Shown: positions 28,335 through 42,943 of the stretch, in pieces
Numbering within the stretch: position 1 is the stretch's first letter
Layout: every line of letters starts with the position of its first letter
Notes under the pieces: generated by a model
What the model was told of the DNA's origin: nothing
Databases searched by the model: none
What the model saw: the letters and a program-made list of their open reading frames with translations, nothing else
Origin: Chondrosia reniformis
Taxonomy: Eukaryota > Porifera > Demospongiae > Chondrillida > Chondrillidae
Length of the DNA: 64,000 bases
NCBI GenBank assembly: GCA_947172415.1
Contig: OX359197.1
Location: 6,387,673-6,451,672 of the forward strand
Direction of reading: 5' to 3'
Made by a program: the position numbers and the translations under genes

Positions 28335-31300
28335 TTAAACCCCTCGGTAACATACTCGAAATGTCTCCCAACAGGTTGGTGTTTGTGTTGGCTTTTGGTT
28401 CGGTGTAGGTCTAGTTTCTGGAGTTGTATGTGTGGCTACTATTTGCGCATCCTACATAGATAGATAAATTATGCATTAATAAAAAGAAAAAAAGCGCCCG
28501 ATGTGGGGCTCGAACCCACGACCCTGGGATTAAGAGTCCCATGCTCTACCGACTGAGCTAACCGGGCTGGTGTAACGGAAAACAATAACAAGTCGTATTT
28601 ATAGTGCAAGAAGAAATTAGCTGTACCTTCGCTTTCTCTAACTTGTTTCCTTCCTCTGTCGCACCTTTATCTCCCCATTGCACCTTTGTGGTAGATCAAC
28701 CGATGCTTATTAGGTAGTAGTCTAATACTGTATACTTACTTTTACTGGTTTAATCCCTCCGGCTCCTCCCCCTCCATATAAGGACGTATCTACAGTTGCC
28801 CATGTCTTGGGAGGTCTGGCTGGTGGCTATTGAAACAACAGAAGAGAAATGAAATATCATTTGCCAAGGTGCCATCTACAATCTAGGTCTCAATTTTCTA
28901 AATACTCCAAACCAAGACAACAAAGCAATAATAATGTAAACTAACCTCTTTTGGTCTTCCAGGAGGCAATCTTTTGGCCACCTTCTACAGAGTATATAAT
29001 AATAATACATGCTAGTAAATTGAAATACCAACTAGTCTCTAAATCTCAACATATTGATTCTGATGCTAAACCTAGGTACATTAATAGAACAATTGTCTAT
29101 ACAGTAAGATCCAAAGACTGCTAATAGGTAGACTTAAGGATTAATCTACACTTTGTAATCTTACCCCTCTGATGAATGGGAGGAAGAACCACAGAAGAAG
29201 CAATCCTACAACTGCTAGAATCAGAATGAGAAAGAGAAAGAACAGTCCAACACCCAACCCTGTTGCATCACTCTACAAAGTCATAGGAGAGAGGAATCAA
29301 TTTCAAGGAAACGCCAATTATTAGGCTTAATTAGGTGTCATTCTATAAACCTACTAACAATGAATATACATCCTGTCTATATGCAATGTACATACATTAC
29401 CTACTAAATACAGTACCTGTGCCAAACCTCCAGTCTGAGAACAATCTTGTTGTACTATGAGCACTTCACTAGCTCTTACAAATACCTTACCATTGAATGA
29501 AATATCTACAGTCCAGTTTCTACATATGTAGGTATGCAGAGAATACATTAAAATAGGAAGCTGGCATGTATATACCTTACCATATACCCCCTTAATATTA
29601 GCGTGCCATTAATGTTGAAGAAATTAGTGATACGATATCAATGTTCGCTAAAATGTTTTTATTACACATGTGCAGTAGTGTGGAGTAAGTATTTACAACA
29701 AAACACTAAATTTAATGGATGCTAATAAGTCATATATGGTAAAACACTAATATTAATGGTTTACAGCATACAAAATCAACTAGTCTATGAAATTGCTCAG
29801 ATAAATTACAAATACAATTTTAAATATATACCACCAGTAGCTCCTTGATCTAATCTCTTCATAGACCAACTCACCCAGGAGAGAGGCCGGGATTAGCACA
29901 AAGTGCCATTGATCCATTAGCTATTTGAACATCTGTAGTCTCCTTGGTGACGCCATTCAATGTAAATCTACACTTTTGTGTATCTGATTCAATGACAAAT
30001 TTTTTAAATCCAGTTCCCTCTAGAGTGAAATCTGTATTTGAATATAAAGTAGAAAGATATTGGCAAGTACTAGTTAATTAAACTAATTGATAGTTTCCAA
30101 TGTAATTTTGGAAATTGTAAGACTTTCATAGGACTGGGTCTCTGATGAATGGTGGAGTTACTAGAAACAGCACTGTCTCAACCAGTGAGCAAGGAGAGGA
30201 TACATCCTCATTCTATATGTGTTATACTGTTATGTGTATGTCTACCCAAGTCATAGAAAATTCGCTTTCATTGTAACCTAATACTAAAAGCAATAAATAT
30301 ATACCACCAGTAGCTCCTTGATCTAATCTCTTCATAGACCAACTCACCCATATAAGTGAGAAATCTATTATACCCAATGAAATATATACAATGTATATAG
30401 ATATTTCAATATACCACTTCTATGTTTCGGTAATTGTATTCATATTATGTATATACATTTTTATACAGTCCTGTTAATCTGTTAGTAAACTACAGATCAT
30501 GTGACATTGTTTATTTACTAAATTTCTCATCCAGTCAAAACAAGCTGTGAGAGAGGTCCAGTCATGAGGTATTGGAACTTAATTGAAATACTCATTCAAG
30601 AGGCTGGTCTTGTGACAATATATTAGTTGCTATGGTTAACCATATAAGGTAAGGGATGACTGCTTCAAACCTAAACAACCTCTTAATATATGTAGTACAT
30701 TTGATAACTGACATACCAGTATGGGGAACTTAATTGTATCTATAGTATTACTATATTAATATAAATAAATATATTCAACTTGACATTAGATTGATCTATA
30801 GTATAATTTTCCTTTTATAGTGACTCATGGGCCCCAACTTGGCCTTGTGCTTTTTTGCACTTTAATAAATATTATTATCATCATTATTATTATTATTATA
30901 ACAAATGCAGCCATTATTAATGTTACATATTTAAGATAAACAAACTACATAATATATTATAGACATTTGCCTGCTTCTTATGAGAAATATAATACTCACT
31001 TGAGCAAGTAGAATTAGTAGTTGATATGATTCTAGTTATTTCAGTGCATACTCTTTTTGAAATAAGCAGTGAACACGTAGTCGTGAGTGCATTTGCTTCT
31101 GCTTGGCAGGTGAATGCATCCTTGCTTGCCAATCCTTTCAACTGCAAAATTTGGCAAGAAGGTTTACTTGATAAAACCAATACACTAGTTTTACAGATTC
31201 ATGCATTACCTTGCTACTTGTAAAGTGATAACCAAACCACAAGTATTAAGAGTATGTATACAAATTGGTTATGCATATAAAGCTTTAAGATTAGGTACCT

Positions 31301-32905
31301 GATCAAATAGATCACTTCTAGATCCAATTACAACTGCCATTATCACAGCACCAAGCTCCTTTACTGTATGACTCTAAATAACAAATAACCAAAAAATATT
31401 ACATGTGTCTTTCTAATGTCTATTCATAATAATGCTGAAGATTCACAAAAGATCAAAAAAGACAAAATTTCCAGGGTCACTGATGAAGGGTGGAATTCTT
31501 AGAAACAGCTGTCTGGCCAGTGGAGAAGAAGAGAAGGAGAAGGAGAAAACTCTTGTATCCTCATCTAAAGCTCTCACTAGGTTTAGTCCCCAGACCCTAT
31601 ATGTCTTTATTCTAAAGTAGATGTAGCATGTAAGAAAAATGGTGTATTCATGCAGTGAATATAGTTGTGTAATTATAACATGACTATATTACACTATATT
31701 ATACTATATTATACTATATTATACTTGCTGGTGTACCAATAATGTACCAGTGAATAAGTCTCGTTTACATCCGATAAACCCCCATCAGAGATGACAATAA
31801 TAATGCTAAGACGTGATTCCCCAACACTCCTTATGGAAGACAGTGCCTACAGGGATGACAAGAGATTGTTATAAAGGCGATAAGAGTTATTAATTAAGAG
31901 CAAATGTAAAAAAATAGAACCTTTACTAGTGTATATTTCATATCACAAGGTGACACAAGTAGATTTAATATAAAAATATAAAAATAACAAGTATTGCAAA
32001 AATGCTGGTTACCATGGTATCACGTAATAAAACTTGATAATAACACTGAATGGAGTTATCTATGTGCACATACATGTATATATCACATTATAGGGGTTGT
32101 GAATGTGGGTGCCATACCAATTGAAGGCCACTACTGAGAAAGGTAAGGCCACCTGGATTTACCATCTTCAGTTTGCTAATACCTTCCTGTATACCTTGAG
32201 AATCCTCCACTTTTGTCAAGGGCATTTGAACAACTGCAGCATCTTCCCAACTGAATGTTATGTAACTTAATCTAAACTCTTGACTGACCAAAAAAAGAAA
32301 GTATATTAATACAAGTAACAAGTACAATTGCACAATTAATGGGGAAAAGTGAGGTATTGTTGAACTTGATGTGACTTACTTTGTGAAGGTTCCACTGATG
32401 CTCTCAACAAAAGGAACTATTGAAGTAGTAAAAATGTCCAGAGCACTTTGTGAGCTAACATAAAGGAAATAAGACATTGGTTACAAGTGTGTACTCTGAG
32501 CTGACAATATATGTATATACACAGAGATGTACCGACAACAATAGCCTTACCTTCTCCCCTCTCTCTCTCTCTCTCCTCACCACTCACATCACTCCCTCAC
32601 TTCCTACTACAAAGTACTATAAGGGATAACTAATTACTAATTACTTATATTCCCGAAACTAAAACATTTATACGAATCGTAAACAATAACATGCCTCCAT
32701 TACTAATAGTCTATATTGGTAGAGAATTGTAAATTCACGATCCAAAAATCGGTAGTTTTATAACTACATGTCTGCTACTACAGTCTAACAAGTACCTGTC
32801 TATAACAAAGTACAGGTCATAATCGCCTTGACATCCACCACTGACGCCTTTCCAACTCAAGCCGAAGTAGAGCAATACCGTCAACAGTATTCCGAGATGT
32901 CTCAT
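28335..32905 (-). CDS. ANTXR-like type I vWA receptor, copy A (13 exons, 444 aa)
   Basis: Exons: 32905-32796, 32454-32380, 32283-32118, 31846-31748, 31373-31299, 31141-31000, 30031-29875, 29519-29417, 29272-29165, 28984-28946, 28826-28740, 28683-28627, 28451-28335 (445 codons). Residues 1-22 are a signal peptide. The vWA domain begins [17 protein letters not shown]; the MIDAS set is complete: DSSQS (D-x-S-x-S), Thr in GGLTFLSSG, Asp in VISDGG. An Ig-like membrane-proximal domain follows, then a helix in [20 protein letters not shown] and a cytosolic tail with [20 protein letters not shown] and [19 protein letters not shown]. Those two tail blocks are diagnostic of the ANTXR1/2 (TEM8/CMG2) family, which binds collagen and laminin and couples to actin. 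A tRNA-Lys gene lies in the last intron. Tandem with copy B. Confidence 0.9.
28495..28567 (-). tRNA. tRNA-Lys (anticodon CTT), intronic
   Basis: The minus strand begins GCCCGGTTAGCTCAGTCGG and folds into a standard cloverleaf. The 7-bp acceptor stem (GCCCGGT with ATCGGGC, one G-U pair), the D-arm with AGCTCAGTCGGTAGAGC and the T-arm GTGGGTTCGAGCCCCAC are intact. The anticodon loop is ACTCTTAA, giving CTT. No CCA is encoded, as expected for a nuclear gene. It lies in the last intron of ANTXR copy A on the same strand; copy B has no tRNA at the equivalent place. Confidence 0.96.
30815..30902 (+). mobile_element. Solo 3' tail of a non-LTR element
   Basis: GGGCCCCAACTTGGCC, then GCACTTTAATAAAT and a run of ATT/ATC triplets. 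The GCACTTTAATAA plus triplet tail also ends the LINE at 60310, so this is probably a 5'-truncated LINE or SINE copy. It sits in an intron of ANTXR copy A. Confidence 0.55.
31437..31655 (+). repeat. Dispersed short repeat, CAGAAACAGCTGTCTGGCC family
   Basis: A nearly full copy of the family at 2369-2572, from GATTCACAAAAGATC to ATGTAGCATGTAAG. It lies in an intron of ANTXR copy A, antisense to that gene. It is absent at the matching intron of copy B, so it inserted after the tandem duplication or was lost from B. Confidence 0.75.
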
Positions 32906-33545: not shown

Positions 33546-36500
33546 TTAAACCCCTCGGTAACATACTCGGAATATTTCCCAACAAGTCGGTGTTGGTTTT
33601 GCCGGAGGTTGATATCCTGGCGTTATATGTGTAGATACTACCTTCGCATCCTACACAGACACACAAACTAGATTAATAGGACTTTGCCAAGTGCAATTAA
33701 CTCCCTTCACATAAACAAAGCTAGCTGGTTGTGAAATACAGTGGATGGAAAAACATATAATTTTAGCATAAGAAAAATTCAACAATTCCACACCTTTGCT
33801 TTCTCTAACTTGTTTCCTTCCTCTGTCGCACCTTTATCTCCCCATTGCACCTTTGTGGTAGATAAACAGATGATTATTAGGTGGTAATCTAATGGTGTAC
33901 ATTTAATTATTCTGCTTACTTTTACTGGTTTAATCCCTCCGGCTCCTCCCCCTCCATATAAGGAAGCATCTACAGTTGCCCATTTCTTAGGAGGTCTGGC
34001 TGGTGGCTATTGAAACAACAAAAGAGAAAGAGGTTACAATCAATCTACACCTTGATATTCTGCAAATCTTTATCAGATGCTAACCACATCAATAAGAAGT
34101 TATGGCTGTAGTAGTCAATAGTTGGGCTACCTGATTCAGCCTTGTTGCCATAGGCAACTAAATAGGCTACCTGATTCAGCCTTGTTGCCATAGGCAACTA
34201 AATAGGCTACCTGATTCAGCCTTGTTGCCATAGGCAACTAAATAGGCTACCTGATACAGTCTTGTTGCCAGGGGCAACTAAATAGGCTACAGGACACATG
34301 CTGCAGGATAACCTTTGAGAGAATGCACCTTATTAGAAATGCCTGTTTCTATAGCAACAAACTGGTTGCTGTGTTAATGTGTGTCAGGGTTAGTAGATGT
34401 ACTCCAGGGGAATGAAATTTGAAGACACTCATGTGAAGCACGAGGTGTTGAGTCTATATTTCGCCCGTCTGTACTTGTAGCATAACAGCATCACATTTTT
34501 ACACAATAAGTTTAATTATACAAAGCAAAACCTCTTTCTCTGGTTCTTCAGGAGGTAGTCCGCCGGCTATCTTCTACAGAAAGTATACATGTACACATCA
34601 GTAAATTGAAATGTCAACTATTCCATAATTCTAAAGAGTCACATATTCTAACCATCTGTTACAGTACTTAAGAAGCTATGACTAAATGGAGCAATCTTGT
34701 AATCTTACCCCTCTGATGAATGGTAGAAAGAACCACAGAAGAAGCAATCCTACAACTGCTAGAATCAGAATGAGAAAGAGAAAGAACAGTCCAACACCCA
34801 ACCCTGTTGCATCACTCTACAAAGGGAAGAGGGATTAGTGATACTTAACTAAATATTCATATATGTACAAAATTAGTATACATATATACATACATACATA
34901 CTTGTGTGAATATAAAAACATAATATATATACGTACATAAAAACATATCAGAGAGATATATATTTAAGTGATGCACTGTTGAACATCAATAAGAAAAGTG
35001 TGTAAGAAGCTAATACCATTAAAACCAGAACAAATGGTTTAGTTGCAAGTGCAGTGCTCTGCCACTGAACCATAATATATACCCACAGCAATACGTCCCT
35101 CTAAAAGCCACTTTGTTCTCATGTAGTAAACCAATTAGAGGTCATTTTTTAAACCTGAACATCACACAGTGGAATCTCATTATAATGAAGCTCAAAGGGA
35201 ACCATAAAAAGTTTCTTAAATCGAATATTCACTATACTGAAAGTATATATAGGTATACAACTTTTGCTGGGGCTAGCAAAGTACTTCACTATACTGAGAC
35301 ATCCAGAGATTCTACAGTACCTGTGCCAAACCTCCAGTCTGAGAACAATCTTGTACTGTGAGCACTTCACTAGCTCTGACATATACCTTACCATCGAACG
35401 AAACATCTACAATCCAGTTTCTACATATGTAGGTATGCAGAGAATACGTTAAATGCAAAAACTATAGTTAATGCAACACACATATGTTCAAAATTAACCA
35501 GTTTATTAATTCACTTCAATTATTTACAATGAAGAACCACAGGTGGCCATTGCTTTTATTCAAGTGTGAGGAATCATTATCTTTTAAAATTTCCTTGAAC
35601 ATTCTGAAACAACTGCACTTTCATTTTTATTTCAATCAGTAATTGAATTACAATTTTAAATATATACCACCAGTAGCTCCTTGATCTAACCTCTTCATAG
35701 ACCAACTCACCCAGGAGAGAGGCAGGGATTAGCACAAAGTGCCATTGATCTATTTACTTGAACATCTGTAGTCTCCTTGGTGACGCCATTCAATGTAAAT
35801 CTACACTTTTGTGTAGCTGATTTAAATTTGTTAAATCCGGTTCCCTCTAGAAAAACATCTATTTTTGGATAAGAGAGAATACGAAGTAGAAAGATTAGAT
35901 GATAGGTACTTTATTCTAACTGTACCAAACTTATCTTTGAGATGGTTCATCTTTAGTCTTTTGAGCATCCAGAGACACAGTTCTAGAGACAAACTGTATC
36001 TCTGGATGCTCAAAAGACTGAAGATGAGCCATCTCAAAGTAGAAATAAATTGACAAGTATTAGCTCACTACTTTTCAATTTATATAAAATTAATGGATCA
36101 TATTACTAATATTAATATGTAATTAGTAAATTGTACGTCTTCATGGTTATGTGCGTAATATTACTGATGAAGACAAACAAGACCATAGCACTATGTACGA
36201 CTTCCAGAAGAAACCTGATTGTGATCCGTTTAATAAAATTCTACATATAAAGTATCTTTGAGATGGTTCATCTTTAGTATTTCGAACATCTAAAGACAAA
36301 GGATGAATCATTTCAAAGATAAGTTAAATGCAGTAGAAGAAATTCCTATAATCTGATTCTAAGTGTTCTTGTGAAAATATTTATGGGATGAATTATAAAT
36401 CAGTACATTTTACAGATCATGTGACATTGTTTATTTACTAAATTTCTCATCCAGTCAAAACAAGCTGTGAGAGAGGTCCAGTCATGAGGTGCCCGACTGA

Positions 36501-39006
36501 CTGGCTACTAGCAGTAATAACACAGCACTGAAGCACTCTCTTTAATTGAATGGAACTTAATTGAAATACTCATTCAAGGAGGCTGGTCTTGTGACAATTG
36601 GTCATGTCTTTCAATAGCTCATCTCATTTGTCATGGTAACAGAAGACTTCTATATATGGAAGCTACTATATATAGCAGCTGCTTTAAGATTATTGTAGCC
36701 ATTAAGCGCACACAAAGACTCCCAAGGAAATTGATCAGAAACAGCTGTCTCACCCAATTGAGAAGGAGGAGAAGACTCTTGTATCCTCATCCAAAGCTCT
36801 CGCTAGGTTAACTTCCCTATAGGCCTTTTTACTCTAAAATAGATGTACACTAGCTTGTAATACTCTACATTGCCAGATTGCAGCTGCTACACTTAGTTAA
36901 CCATATAAGGCAAACAATATATGGTTTCTAAATCTAAACACCTGATAACTGATAACATGTAAAACTTCATTAATTTTATCTATTCAACATATTGTACAAA
37001 CGGAAACTTTGTCAGATTGGTGGTTTTGAGAGCAATCCACCAATATTTCAACCGCCAAACTACATTGAATGTGGGAGAACAACTGTCTTGTAAGTAAAAT
37101 CCACCAAATAGTTTTCCTGCCAAAATTTCCGGCTATACGGTATTCATTATATATGGATATGTACTACATACAGTATATACGTAGCTTCACTGTATCCATA
37201 TATATATTATAAAGTCTTACAAAAATTACTAACACTTCACTTACTTGAGCAATGGCAAGTTGAAGTAATTGTAGTTATTTCAATGCATGCTTTATTTGAA
37301 ATAGGCAGCAAACACATGTTTGTAAGATCGCTTGCTTCTGCATGGCAGGTGAATGCATCTTTACTTGCCAACGTTTTCAACTGCAAAATTTGGCAAGAAG
37401 GTTTTATCTGGCAATACCAACACACTGGTTTTACAGATTGAATTGTATTGATTTGCTACTTGTAAAGTGATAATCAAACCACAACTCTTAAATTCACACA
37501 CAAAAACCGGAGAAATAAGTGCAAATCTGAGTTTTCTTCCCACTCCAACTCCCATATTACATACCTGACTTATAAGAGCACTTCCCACTCCAACTCCCAT
37601 ATTACATACCTGACTTATAAGAGCACTTCCCACTCCAACTCCCATATTACATACCTGACTTATAAGAGCACTGCCCACTCCAACTCCCATATTACATACC
37701 TGACTTGAAACAGCCCTACCCACTCCAACTCCCATTATCACAGCACCAAGCTCCTTTATTGTATCACTCTACACAAAATACAAAATAACCAAAAGTAACA
37801 TATTTCTCATTAAATTGGTCTTCTATATTTGCTAAATGTTCATATGTACATACGTATGTATGTAGTGAATTTAAGCATAATAAATATAATGACAACACGT
37901 CTATAATGTACCAGCATATAGGACGCATCTTCATCTGATAGAGATCCATCAGTGATGACAATAATAATGCTAAGACGTGATTCCCCAACACTCCTTATGG
38001 AAGACAGTGCCTATAGGGATGACAAGAGATTGTTATAAAGGCGATAAGAGTTATTAATAAGAGTAAATGTATAAAAATAGAACCTTTACTAGTGCATATC
38101 TCATATCACGAGGTGACAAAAGTGGATTTAATATAAATTTGAACAAGTATTGCAAAAATGCTGGTTACCATGGTATCACTTGATAATAAAATAGAATGGA
38201 GTTACTACTATGTACACATACATGTATCACATTATAGGGTTTGTGAATGTGGATGCCATACCAATTGAAGGCCACTACTGAGAAAGGTAAGGCCGCCTGG
38301 ATTTACCATCTTCAGTTTGTCAATACCTTCCTGTATACCTTGGGCATCCTCCACTTTTGTCAATGGCATTTGAACAACTGCAGCATTTTCCGAACTGAAT
38401 GTTATGTAACTTAATCTAAACTCTTGACTGACCAAAAAAAGAAAGAATATTAATACAAGTAACAAGTACAATTGCACAATTAATGGGGAAAAGTGAGGTA
38501 TTGTTGAACTTGATGTGACTTACTTTGTGAAGGTTCCACTGATGCTCTCAACAAAAGGAACTATTGAAGTAGTAAAAATGCCCATAGCACTTTGTGAGCT
38601 GAAAGAGGTTGACAAAATATATTTAATGATCTCATCTTCTCCTCCTCCCTCTCTCCTCACTACTTAAATAGCACTCACTCCCTTAATTCTTTACTAGGAT
38701 AACTATATTATAATTATATAATTATCTATTCCCGAAACGAAAAGCATTTTATACGAGTCAAATAAGAAAACGATAAGATGCCAAATCAATATTACTAATA
38801 TTATTTATCATAATCTATCGTAAGGCACAGCATTGTTATCCACGCTCCAATTGTTTACTAAATTTTAGTAACACTCCACTACCGTCAAACAAGTACCTGT
38901 CTATAACAAAGTACAGGTCATAATCGCCTTGACATTCACCACTGACGCCTTTCCAGGACAAGTCGAAGTAGAGCAATGTCGATAACAGTATTCCGAGATG
39001 TCTCAT
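33546..39006 (-). CDS. ANTXR-like type I vWA receptor, copy B, with multiplied splice donor (13 exons, 433 aa minimum form)
   Basis: Exons: 39006-38897, 38598-38524, 38427-38262, 38010-37912, 37768-37700 (minimum form), 37380-37245, 35858-35711, 35420-35321, 34816-34709, 34573-34532, 34006-33920, 33850-33794, 33650-33546; the sum is 434 codons. Exon order, phases and domains equal copy A: signal peptide, vWA with DSSQS, GGLT and ITDGS (complete MIDAS), an Ig-like domain, a TM segment identical in protein to copy A, and the tail blocks [15 protein letters not shown] and [12 protein letters not shown]. Exon 5 differs. After [10 protein letters not shown] the exon end plus donor is repeated every 45 bp, giving four in-frame donors at 37700, 37655, 37610 and 37565. 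Later donors would add 15, 30 or 45 residues beside the vWA ligand face. Copy B also has diverged Ig-domain residues, for example [16 protein letters not shown]. Confidence 0.88.
34125..34284 (+). repeat. 40-bp minisatellite in ANTXR copy B intron
   Basis: Four copies of a 40-bp unit with GGCTACCTGATTCAGCC and the internal palindrome TTGCCATAGGCAA. It is absent from the matching intron of copy A. Confidence 0.93.
35930..36045. mobile_element. Fold-back (long inverted repeat) element
   Basis: Two arms of about 45 bp (GAGATGGTTCATCTTTAGTC ... and its near-perfect inverse ending GATGAGCCATCTC) flank a spacer of about 10 bp. The transcript would form a long hairpin. A degraded relative with GAGATGGTTCATCTTTAGTA and GATGAATCATTTC lies at 36255-36325. 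Both are in an intron of ANTXR copy B. Probably a MITE or fold-back transposon; a small-RNA precursor is the alternative. Confidence 0.75.
36705..36860 (+). repeat. Dispersed short repeat, CAGAAACAGCTGTCTGGCC family
   Basis: Diverged copy with CAGAAACAGCTGTCTCACCC, CATCCAAAGCTCTCGC and CCCTATAGGCCTTTTTACTC, inside an intron of ANTXR copy B. It is at a different intronic position from the copy in gene A. Confidence 0.7.
36997..37144 (-). repeat. MITE-like repeat with ACCGTATAGCC end
   Basis: Shares blocks such as GAGAGCAATCCACC, CGCCAAACTACATTGAATG and a GGCTATACGGT end with 17224-17420 in a HADHA intron. No coding capacity. Confidence 0.5.
37536..37740 (-). repeat. 45-bp tandem repeat duplicating an exon end with its splice donor
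   Basis: Five occurrences of ATGGGAGTTGGAGTGGG spaced 45 bp on the minus strand. The first four are each followed by AGTCAGGTATGTAAT, a strong donor. Unit 1 ends GCTGTTTCAAGTCAG; units 2-4 are almost identical to each other (GCTCTTATAAGTCAG). The array lies across the end of exon 5 of ANTXR copy B and is open in the exon frame; one translated unit is [15 protein letters not shown]. Confidence 0.93.
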
Positions 39007-39506: not shown

Positions 39507-42500
39507 TCAGTTCAACAAATTGGGATTTTGAAAAAGTGCAGCAGTGTTTCCTCCTGGCAAGTCCTGAAGATCTTCAACTTCAATCTTGCATGATTTCCTA
39601 GAGTTACTCGTCAGTCGAGATGCCCTTCTTACTGGGGTAAGACAGAAGTCAATGTTGGCTGTAGATAGATTTCTAAGAAGAAACAAGAAATAGAAGCAAC
39701 ATTAATAATGAACAGTCTTTTTACAAACATTGTCATTATGAAACACATGTCAGGGCTGTATGCAGAACTTGGGGCCAGAGGGGGCAAAATGAATATTTTC
39801 AAAATTTAAGGGGATAATGATATGAGGGCATCAAAACAGTTTAGGGGATTCCCAAGTCTAGGGGCGGGGCTAAATCAATCCTAGGGGTCCCCCTGCCCCC
39901 CCTCTATGCAGCCCTGCATGTCCTGACTTCATATATATAATCATATAATGATCCAATGAAAACAGACTAAAGGATTAAATGTCAGTGTTACTGACCGTAA
40001 CATTCGATTCCTCGGAGAGAGAGCAGAGTACATTCTAATAGATCCTCTCCGGCCACTGAGACGAGCTGGACTACTGCGAGCTAAAGATACAGTACACAAT
40101 GATATAGGTTTCTGAGTAAGAACCAGTAGCTCAGCACAAAACCCACATTTTCTCCTCTTTGTCTTCTTAGGTGTTGGGGTAAATGAGATAAGCTGCCCTA
40201 TGGGGCAGTTGTTAGCTTGGTCTTCCTGCTTCAAGAAATCCAAGGTGCTGTTTAAATCCTCATCCTCAAGAACAGGGGGAGATGGCAGAAGTGAGGGCTC
40301 CAGGTAGGACACTGGAATGCTATCGGCGTCTGGAGAATTGCTCACTAAGGCAGCATTGGCACTGCCACTAGATGAGGTATCAAGGCCTGTCAGCTTGGCA
40401 GCAAACTTGACCATTTCTCTTACACAATTATCAGATGACTCGTGTTTGCTGGATATTCTCAAACTTCTTCTGACTTGACTGGTGACTTTGGTTGCTCTGA
40501 GAGATGGAGTTGACTTCTTTGGTGTTTTGAAGATTACAGGTACGCGTGGGTTCTTGAACTCTATAAGGATTGGTTCATCAACCGTCTCTTTCTGCATTCT
40601 CTTTGCCTTTTCTCTCAACTCCTTTAGCTTCTTGCGTTGTTCAATCCTTCTTGGATCACTGTCGGCAGTGCCTTTTGTTGTCTTAGTCTTGTTTGATGCC
40701 TTCTACAGTTATTCAAATACAAGTGTATTATCAATACACTGGCTAGCTATGCACACATACATGTAAACATACAAATACTATTAAAAGAACTTACCTTCTT
40801 CCGTCCTTTCTTTTTTACTGTTCCCTCCTCCCCAAGGTACTTCCAATTGTTCTGTTCCATTATTGATAGTTTTTCAAACTTTTTGAAAATGTCCTCCACT
40901 TGAAGGTATACCATGTCCCAGAAAGCTTGTAAATCATCAGCATAGACAGGCTGTACTGCATTTGGATCCTAAATCAAACGTTCACATATGAATTTATTGA
41001 GCACCAGTAACAGTTCCTACATAGATGCTATCATTACCTCAGCTTGGCTGCAAAGTGACTTGAACTGTCTCAACTTTTCATTTATCAATAGCCTAGTCTG
41101 ACACACTGCACTCCGGATGGTATCTAGTGCTGCATGCATATGACTTACAGTAGAGGTATGCATTGAAGCCTTGCCAAAGACTTATAGCCACATGTACGTA
41201 CCTTCCTGCATGTCTTCTGCACTCTCTTCCTCAGCTGCCTTCTTTTCCAAATCATTTAGCTTTCTCTCCCAAGTCTCCATCAGTTCCTTCAAGGCATCCA
41301 CCTCTCTGTCATGCAGGGAGTGGAAGGTGGCCATATCGGGGGCTCTGGCAGGCTCTTCCTCCAAGCTGTCATTAAGTACATCTTGCAACACTCCCGGGGA
41401 AGGAGGTGGAGCTGAACGGCTGACCAAAAGTTGACTTCTAGTCATGTAGCATTTGGTTGATCCAATCCTAGAATTAGATTTTGGACTGTCACAAAGCAGC
41501 TTCTTTATCAGCGGCGTGACCCGACGGTCAGAACTGCTACATGCAGCAACACCTTCGCTCTGTGAGAGCACTGGACTGTTCATCAGGTCTTGTGCAGGCA
41601 CATAGGAGAAGCTATTTTCATGACTGGGAGATGGAGAACCTCGCATGAATGTGACCTATGGAAATGAATGAATACTCAGGTTGAGTTCAACAAATACATA
41701 CATAGAATTCAAAAGCGATATACTCAGAAGCAGTGGATAAGGTCAAAGAGAGAGGTACGTACTAGGTGTAGGAGAACGGTGTTATAATAAATTTAAGACT
41801 TACCATGGAATTTTTTGGGTTGTAAGTTTTGTCTGGTTTCTCCTTGGTGTCCATCCTCAGTGTAAAGGTGAAACCACTTGTCTGCTTCATTTGACCATCA
41901 TATCCTCCAAACCTGCCATTAAAAGTAACTAAATACACTTCTTTCCGAGCTAGCCTATCAACTCATACATACCAAGGTCTACCAGCTAAAGAGATGTTGT
42001 TTTCACTCACCGATAAGGGCTCATGGGCTTTTCAAAGTCAGTAAATGCTTCGCTAAAGCTGGATATGGGTTTGGGGACCCCAGCTAGCCAAGTATCCACT
42101 GATGCGGTCTCTCTTCCCTTGCTCGACTCGGTGACCGTCTCAGAAGGTTTGGGTAGAGGATTCGCTTTTACTGGGCGAGGCTTAACCGCAGTCTTTTTGG
42201 TGGGTTTGGAGTTCGCAGGTTGCTTTCCAGTAATATTCTTTGTTTGAGAGCGCGTCACTGGTCTAGAAATATCAGGTTTCTGAACCTTCGCTGCCGCTCT
42301 CTTGCTGCCTGCCTGCTTTTTCACTTCAGCTTTGAGTTTCTTGATGTCTCCTGTCTTCTCTACTTCCTTTGATTTGGTAGCACGCTTGCCATGTTGGCAT
42401 ACAAATGATGCAGGCTTTACAACTGGTGGCGCGACACCGACCACGAACGGCTTTTTGCGATTTTCTCTTTCGTGTCTGAGTTTAACTTCTTTTTCCTTCA

Positions 42501-42782
42501 ACCAAACCTCTAGCTGCTTCTTACGTAATATTGACCCCTCTAAATAAGATTGTTGACATGCAAACAGAACAACGTTTGAATAAAGTTTAGCTTACCAGAT
42601 TCTTTGACAGTTGTCGATTTCTTTTGATTCTCCTTCTCCTCTTTGGCTATATCACGCCTAGACATAATCGTTTCTTGACGAGCATCTTTTCTCTTTTGTC
42701 TGTTGTATAGTTCGCGTTTCTCTTTAGCATTAATATTCGTAAGAGTTGATTTGGCCTTGAACGTTAACTTTCTTCTATCCAT
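39507..42782 (-). CDS. DLGAP5: DLGAP5/HURP-like spindle protein with GKAP domain (8 exons, about 805 aa)
   Basis: Exons: 42782-42596, 42539-42011, 41912-41804, 41655-41202, 41129-41038, 40968-40795, 40702-39996, 39672-39507 (806 codons). The central GKAP/DLGAP region is clear: ALDTIRSAVCQTRLLINEKL, LRQFKSLCSQAEDPNAVQPV, ADDLQAFWDMVYLQVEDIF and FEKLSIMEQNNW. The N-terminus is long, basic and coiled-coil prone (EKRELYNRQKRKDARQE; KEKEVKLRHERENRKK) with PVTRSQTK. That layout fits HURP, which bundles kinetochore microtubules in the RanGTP pathway, rather than neuronal DLGAP1-4. A KEN box is visible in exon 1 (EKENQKK). Near the C-terminus GQLISFTPTPKKTK resembles the end of vertebrate HURP. A 66-nt stretch (about 40084-40149) inside the penultimate exon has GT..AG ends, is a multiple of three and encodes hydrophobic, Cys-rich residues; it may be a small retained intron, which would give about 783 aa. 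Confidence 0.78.
39751..39916 (+). mobile_element. CAGGGCTG-ended MITE
   Basis: Starts CAGGGCTGTATGCAG and ends CTATGCAGCCCTG, which are inverted repeats of each other. It is flanked by CATGT on both sides, consistent with a 5-bp target duplication. The interior matches 18088-18260 in reverse. It sits in the last intron of the DLGAP5-like gene. Confidence 0.82.
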
Positions 42783-42943
42783 CGCCGATAGCTAGCTTCT
42801 GTTTGAAATCTGGAATAGCACACGGAAAAATGAACTTCGTCGTCGCTTATGAAATGGCGCTATAAAAATTTAAAATTGACCAATCAAATACCGTGGGTAC
42901 ACGTGACCACTATATTAGCTTGTTGCAGATCACATGATTCGTA
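42783..42943. promoter_or_regulatory. 161-bp divergent promoter of the DLGAP5-like gene and the secreted-protein gene
   Basis: Start codons of the two divergent genes are at 42782 (minus) and 42944 (plus). The spacer contains GACCAATCAAAT, a CCAAT-box match for NF-Y, near 42879 and TTTGAA near 42801. A CCAAT box plus a CHR element (TTTGAA) is the usual makeup of G2/M cell-cycle promoters, which would suit a HURP gene. Function is inferred. Confidence 0.5.

What the first reader, a model, noticed from the sequence alone, without database searches (positions are those of the whole stretch)
37536..37768. A splice donor multiplied by a 45-bp tandem repeat could make a vWA receptor with a variable loop
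Seen: exon 5 of ANTXR-like copy B ends with CAG|GTATGT, and this exon end plus donor is repeated at exact 45-bp spacing, giving four equally strong donors (37700, 37655, 37610, 37565). The repeat is open in frame, so each later donor adds 15 residues (one unit [15 protein letters not shown]) with no frame change. Paralogue A has a single donor. Known: in vWA domains this strand ([10 protein letters not shown]) leads to a loop on the MIDAS face. Inference: tandem duplication has created a length-variable insert beside the ligand site by alternative 5' splice choice, and repeat-number polymorphism could diversify it between individuals. Units 2-4 are nearly identical, implying recent expansion.
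Basis: partly seen in the sequence, partly recalled or inferred. Interest (0 to 1): 0.85.

Follow-up and report, generated by a model that had tools for sequence, protein, structure and literature searches.

The report
Repeated splice site in sponge receptor
In one of two neighbouring sponge genes for a cell-surface receptor, a short stretch of DNA that includes an exon end and its splice site is repeated, so the cell has four near-equal places to cut the message and could make the protein with 0, 15, 30 or 45 extra amino acids; whether it does so, or benefits, is not yet shown.

Summary
On the minus strand, exon 5 of ANTXR-like copy B (37768-37700) ends in CAG|GTATGT. A 45-bp unit spanning exon end and donor is repeated, giving four donors (after 37700, 37655, 37610, 37565) identical from base -7 to +26. 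Of the three forward frames only the receptor's is open. The unit was found nowhere else in the genome. Copy A has one donor. Both copies read as intact 13-exon genes. Two chromosome lengths match Chondrosia reniformis odChoReni1.1 to the base.

Donor 1 gives a von Willebrand A domain that aligns without a gap at the junction to human ANTXR2. The other donors would insert 15, 30 or 45 residues, by recall at the start of helix 6, near but not in the metal-site loops.

No transcript or population data were available, so donor use and repeat-number polymorphism are untested. The indirect signals conflict: normal length and (by recall) G-runs favour donor 1; predicted RNA accessibility favours donors 2-4.

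Repeats across a splice junction are known: the human CBS 31-bp VNTR has the same anatomy. I read this as a new, in-frame member of that kind, more likely tolerated than adaptive. RNA run ERR10177766 and the alternate haplotype would decide.

The parts
37700..37768 (-). Copy B exon 5 as ended by donor 1 (69 nt, [23 protein letters not shown])
   Evidence: Homology to copy A exon 5 and ungapped alignment to ANTXR2 at the junction
37655..37699 (-). Added unit 1 ([15 protein letters not shown]), ends at donor 2
37610..37654 (-). Added unit 2, ends at donor 3
37565..37609 (-). Added unit 3, ends at donor 4
37536..37564 (-). Partial last unit; gives donor 4 the same downstream bases as the other donors
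37245..37380 (-). Copy B exon 6 (begins [10 protein letters not shown]), the acceptor side of the junction
33546..39006 (-). Whole copy B coding model, 13 exons, 433 residues with donor 1
28335..32905 (-). Copy A coding model, 13 exons, 444 residues; paralogue with a single exon 5 donor
31299..31373 (-). Copy A exon 5 with its single donor CAG|gtacct

Best explanation
A recent in-frame minisatellite expansion across the exon 5 / intron 5 junction of ANTXR-like copy B has turned one splice donor into four donors that are alike over 33 bases. The splicing machinery can join any of them to exon 6, so transcripts with 0, 1, 2 or 3 copies of [15 protein letters not shown] are expected, in unknown proportions. 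Shown: the array, the four alike donors, the open frame, the intact gene model. Inferred: that more than one donor is used; that the 0-unit protein is the working receptor; that the longer forms are tolerated because frame and domain ends are kept, not because the loop was selected. Each unit ends with helix-start-like residues (SALISQ) in front of LKTLAS, so a longer form could rebuild the helix start and push the extra residues out as a surface loop.
For: Array and donors; both copies intact from start to stop with matching splice ends; Ka/Ks of A against B 0.57 over 432 codons; donor 1 product ungapped against ANTXR2 at the junction; array donors score 10.5 on a matrix of the 22 other A/B donors, which score 4.7-9.8 (rough, many of the 22 are paralogous); the anatomy recurs in human CBS and AGGT repeats with introns across several copies occur in fission yeast.
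Against: No transcript was seen. Signals on donor choice disagree: opening energy 5.6 kcal/mol for donor 1 against 2.4-2.7 for donors 2-4 in the exon 5-intron 5 fold would favour the long forms, while the normal length would favour donor 1 alone. Copy A's only donor gives 2.3-7.2 kcal/mol by flank length, so this measure does not separate used from unused donors. An added cysteine per unit should be costly if long forms were abundant.
Confidence: 0.5

Rival explanations
1. Silent array: only donor 1 (37700) is used and the three added units are always removed as intron.
For: Donor 1 gives the normal vWA length. The unit has GGG runs after every donor and between donors; by recall, G-runs favour the upstream of two competing donors in mammals. 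A paper seen in passages reports that silencer-like elements between competing 5' sites suppress the intron-proximal one, and that a G-triplet motif did so for 3' sites (PMC1877881).
Against: The downstream donors have the same bases and are predicted easier to open.
Confidence: 0.2
2. Constitutive long form: the intron-proximal donor 4 (37565) is used and copy B always carries 45 extra residues.
For: Donors 2-4 predicted more accessible than donor 1; SRSF1 is reported to favour intron-proximal 5' sites in human cells (PMC5585400, passages).
Against: A 45-residue, cysteine-adding insert in the vWA domain; the Pfam VWA match of the 3-unit form stops before the insert (64.9 bits, to residue 174) while the 0-unit form matches through it (70.4 bits, to residue 186).
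Confidence: 0.12
3. One reading: a selected, length-variable loop beside the ligand site, set by donor choice and by repeat number between individuals.
For: Frame-keeping unit, four alike donors, recent expansion, position on the metal-site side (by recall).
Against: Unit composition unlike a binding loop; about 12% chance of an open in-frame unit without selection; no polymorphism or expression data.
Confidence: 0.12
4. Copy B is decaying or not expressed and the array is of no consequence.
For: Ka/Ks is high in parts (0.98 over 79 codons of the extracellular remainder, with only 5 synonymous changes); B has a weak exon 10 donor, GAG|gttttg.
Against: All 13 exons open and in frame; Ka/Ks 0.57 overall and 0.41 in the membrane and cytoplasmic part.
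Confidence: 0.05
5. Assembly artefact.
For: Tandem repeats can be mis-assembled.
Against: A 200-bp array is far shorter than a HiFi read, and the primary assembly has consensus quality 69.8 (PMC12181767, passages).
Confidence: 0.01

Closest known systems
Human CBS 31-bp VNTR, c.1444_1467+7(16_21)
   Same: The unit spans the last exon bases and the first intron bases, so each copy carries a splice donor; 16-21 copies, polymorphic (PMC2630376, passages); at the exon 13 / intron 13 boundary (PMC1395315, passages). By recall, RT-PCR evidence of alternative splicing there was reported by Lievers 2001 (not held).
   Different: 31 is not divisible by three and there are many more copies; more repeats go with lower enzyme activity (PMC5188458, passages). 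The sponge unit is 45 bp, in frame, four donors, in a receptor ectodomain.
Human CBS c.844_845ins68
   Same: Tandem duplication of an intron-exon junction puts two alternative splice sites close together (PMC2630376, passages).
   Different: By the title of its cited reference it concerns the 3' splice site (the passage says donor); one duplication, with strong preference for one site.
AGGT tandem duplication, intron gain (Schizosaccharomyces SPOG_01682 and SOCG_00815, potato RdRp)
   Same: Short AGGT-containing tandem repeats (24 bp in fission yeast) with introns that start and end among the copies (PMC4974935, passages).
   Different: There the repeats make a new intron; here they multiply the donor of an existing one.
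ANTXR1/ANTXR2 receptors
   Same: vWA domain, transmembrane stretch, anthrax-receptor C-terminal region.
   Different: Anth_Ig domain not matched in B and below cut-off in A; donor array in B.

Membership tests
ANTXR receptor family | vWA domain closest to ANTXR1/2 | tested here: met
   Pfam VWA 70.4 bits in B, 54.9 in A; 16 of 18 solved sequences matched by B's vWA part are ANTXR1/2 or chimeras of ANTXR2
ANTXR receptor family | Metal-site residues DxSxS, T, D (motif by recall) | tested here: met
   Read in the copy B translation: VIDSSQS, GGLTF, ITDG; copy A has ISDG at the third
ANTXR receptor family | Ant_C cytoplasmic region | tested here: met
   32.5 bits in B, 35.7 in A, cut-off 25
ANTXR receptor family | Anth_Ig extracellular domain | tested here: inconclusive
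   A 18.9 bits, below cut-off 26.9; no match in B at E 0.01
ANTXR receptor family | Single transmembrane helix | not tested
   Exon 9 encodes a long hydrophobic stretch by eye; no predictor was run
Splice-junction VNTR of the CBS kind | Repeat unit contains exon end plus donor | tested here: met
Splice-junction VNTR of the CBS kind | Repeat number varies between chromosomes | not testable with these tools
   Alternate haplotype GCA_947172445.1 exists but is not held; a scan of genome contigs for the unit core found 0 matches
Splice-junction VNTR of the CBS kind | More than one donor used | not testable with these tools
   No transcript data held
Intron gain by tandem duplication | New intron with GT and AG inside the array | tested here: inconclusive
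   Each unit begins GTATGT and ends CAG, but is 45 nt against 56 nt for the smallest of the 24 introns in the A and B models; the protein outcome would equal donor choice

The most novel reading that the evidence does not exclude
A sponge vWA receptor whose extracellular domain is made in several lengths from one allele by choice among four alike tandem donors, with heritable repeat-number changes altering the set of lengths between individuals: a splice-driven, frame-locked length diversifier next to a ligand face.
Probability: 0.12. Interest if true: 0.75.

Novelty: new member of a known kind. Interest (0 to 1): 0.36.

Why it matters
Four donors that match over 33 bases, in a natural gene with an unexpanded paralogue next door, make a clean natural test of how position alone decides 5' splice-site choice in an early-branching animal. 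If several donors are used, it shows how a minisatellite can become in-frame protein length variation; if only one is used, it shows how such repeats stay silent.

Tried and rejected
Rejected: assembly artefact (short array, HiFi assembly). Rejected: dispersed element; the 29-base unit core with up to 3 mismatches has 4 matches in the 117-Mb genome, all in this array. Rejected as strong evidence: the open frame by itself (about 12% by chance). Considered: G-quadruplexes; folding with and without a quadruplex term gave the same minimum energy for all three stretches folded. Considered: 45-nt introns inside the array; shorter than any of the 24 introns in the A and B models.

Considered: other arrays of the same sort. 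Exact patterns of three CAGGTATGT (74 matches, which I group into 13 arrays) or three CAGGTAAGT (15 matches, 4 arrays) at 29-59 base spacing; the reversed-pattern controls gave 24 and 5 matches. Of the 17 arrays 3 keep all spacings divisible by three: this one, L063 and L064. L064's donors run antisense to a RING-like frame, named by eye; L063 shows long repeat frames. I ran no family search on these or on the other 14, and searched no other donor spelling.

Paper searches on tandem donors, VNTRs and competing sites were read as listings only as far as shown: 15 of 1,782; 20 of 49; 10 of 38; 12 of 33; 6 of 6; 0; 7 of 7; 4 of 4. The closest cases were CBS and AGGT intron gain; one search also lists intronic VNTRs that affect splicing of ABCA7 and MIR137HG, not read. 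A search for ANTXR in sponges showed 12 of 43 papers, none holding the term anthrax toxin receptor. These searches do not show that the thing is unpublished.

Full report
What was checked. The minus-strand sequence and Tandem Repeats Finder show the array as described: 37536-37735, period 45, 4.4 copies, no indels. Exon 5 of copy B ends at 37700 with CAG and is followed by GTATGT; the same exon end and donor recur at 37655, 37610 and 37565. The partial last copy gives donor 4 the same downstream 26 bases as the others, so the four donors share bases -7 to +26. The three added units differ at a single synonymous base.

Where it is. Two chromosome lengths of the window's genome (C7 8,459,200 and C13 6,903,244; [quoted passage not shown] Not everything is equal: the total is 117,379,552 bases in 15 contigs against 117.37 Mb in the text and 117,390,217 bp in a figure legend, and contig C1 is 10,409,357 against 10,413,042 for the longest scaffold in that legend. 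The species call rests on this comparison. The assembly used PacBio HiFi reads; one RNA-seq run and an alternate haplotype are deposited.

The genes. Homology between the two copies, and splice ends that agree, give 13 exons for each, open from start to stop: 433 residues for B and 444 for A. B matches Pfam VWA (70.4 bits) and Ant_C (32.5, cut-off 25); A matches both and has an Anth_Ig match below cut-off; B has no Anth_Ig match at E 0.01. Of 18 solved sequences matched by B's vWA part, 16 are ANTXR1/2 or chimeras of ANTXR2. Searching the genome with B's vWA part gave 11 matches: 9 on these two copies and 2 weak ones elsewhere (E 0.011 and 0.041, 21% and 24% identity). Ka/Ks between A and B is 0.57 over 432 codons, 0.59 in the vWA region, 0.98 in the extracellular remainder (79 codons, 5 synonymous changes) and 0.41 in the membrane and cytoplasmic part.

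What the donors would make. Donor 1 joins ...[11 protein letters not shown] to LKTLASKD..., which aligns without a gap at this point to ANTXR2 ...CVGVLDFEQAQLERIAD.... Copy A is two residues longer here. Donors 2-4 add 15, 30 or 45 residues between that Gln and Leu. By recall of the ANTXR2 fold this is in the first turn of helix 6, after the strand-to-helix loop on the metal-site side; I could not measure distances. Each unit repeats the end of the strand, the loop and the helix start, so a longer form could use the last unit's SALISQ to start the helix and push the rest out (inference). Against a binding role, the unit has no charge, is mainly hydrophobic and glycine, and adds one cysteine each.

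Which donor is likely used. There is no transcript evidence here. With a score matrix from the 22 other A and B donors (many of them paralogous, so rough) the array donors score 10.5, above all 22 (4.7-9.8); copy A's exon 5 donor scores 7.0. Predicted opening energy of the nine donor bases is 5.6 kcal/mol for donor 1 and 2.4-2.7 for donors 2-4 in the exon 5-intron 5 fold; the order held at all four flank lengths tested, with gaps of about 1.3 to 3.6 kcal/mol. Copy A's only exon 5 donor gave 2.3 to 7.2 kcal/mol over the same flank lengths, so the measure does not separate used from unused donors. Accessibility leans to the downstream donors; the normal product leans to donor 1. G-runs after and between the donors would, by recalled mammalian rules, lean to donor 1; SRSF1 is reported to favour the intron-proximal site and hnRNP A1 the distal one (PMC5585400, passages). 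The signals do not agree, so I expect mixed use, at about even confidence.

How unusual. The window alone holds 17 separate tandem arrays (my merging of the 24 rows), so repeats touching exon ends are to be expected in this genome. Exact searches found 17 arrays with three or more CAGGTATGT or CAGGTAAGT at 29-59 base spacing; the reversed control patterns gave 24 and 5 matches, against 74 and 15. Three of the 17, this one included, keep all spacings divisible by three. This one lies on an exon end supported by homology; I did not search the other 16 for genes with the family libraries. An open unit that keeps frame has about a 12% chance by luck.

Comparison with what is known. The human CBS 31-bp VNTR, written c.1444_1467+7(16_21), has the same anatomy: by its name 24 exon bases plus 7 intron bases per unit, 16-21 copies, polymorphic (PMC2630376, passages), at the exon 13 / intron 13 boundary (PMC1395315, passages), with more repeats linked to lower activity (PMC5188458, passages). 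CBS 844ins68 shows a duplicated junction with strong preference for one site (PMC2630376, passages). Fission-yeast genes with repeated 24-bp AGGT segments and introns across them are described in PMC4974935 (passages). The sponge case is therefore a new member of a known kind. Its distinguishing points are that the unit divides by three, all four donors are intact and alike, and the target is a receptor's vWA domain.

Verdict. The reading as a diversity-generating receptor loop is possible but unproven, and less likely than a tolerated repeat with mixed or single donor use. One existing RNA-seq run and one existing alternate haplotype would settle the main points.

Noticed in passing
30294-30350, 29821-29877, 35657-35713: A 57-base stretch that starts at the end of exon 7 and runs into intron 7 of both copies (GG|GTGAGTTGGTCTATGAAG...) has an extra copy inside intron 6 of copy A, 98% identical to the one in copy B (the 29821-29877 place is worked out from the exon ends). 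A second duplicated donor region in the same gene pair.
   Followed up: no
34709-34816 and 29165-29272: The transmembrane exon and its edges are 98.4% identical over 128 bases between copies A and B, against about 80% in the 5' part, as after gene conversion.
   Followed up: no
36411-36490 and 30491-30570: An 80-base stretch in intron 6 is 100% identical between copies A and B, more than the coding exons.
   Followed up: no
34125-34290: A second minisatellite (40 bp, 4.2 copies) lies in intron 10 of copy B.
   Followed up: no
35935-36039 and 36241-36333: Two near-perfect palindromes (arms 48 and 45 nt, 94% and 78%) with shared sequence lie in intron 6 of copy B, like a small inverted-repeat mobile element.
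   Followed up: no
28494-28567: A tRNA-Lys (ctt) gene predicted by ARAGORN inside intron 12 of copy A, same strand.
   Followed up: no
39510-42791: Minus-strand coding stretches just upstream of copy B look like a DLGAP5/HURP-type gene (name by eye from the translation, no search).
   Followed up: no
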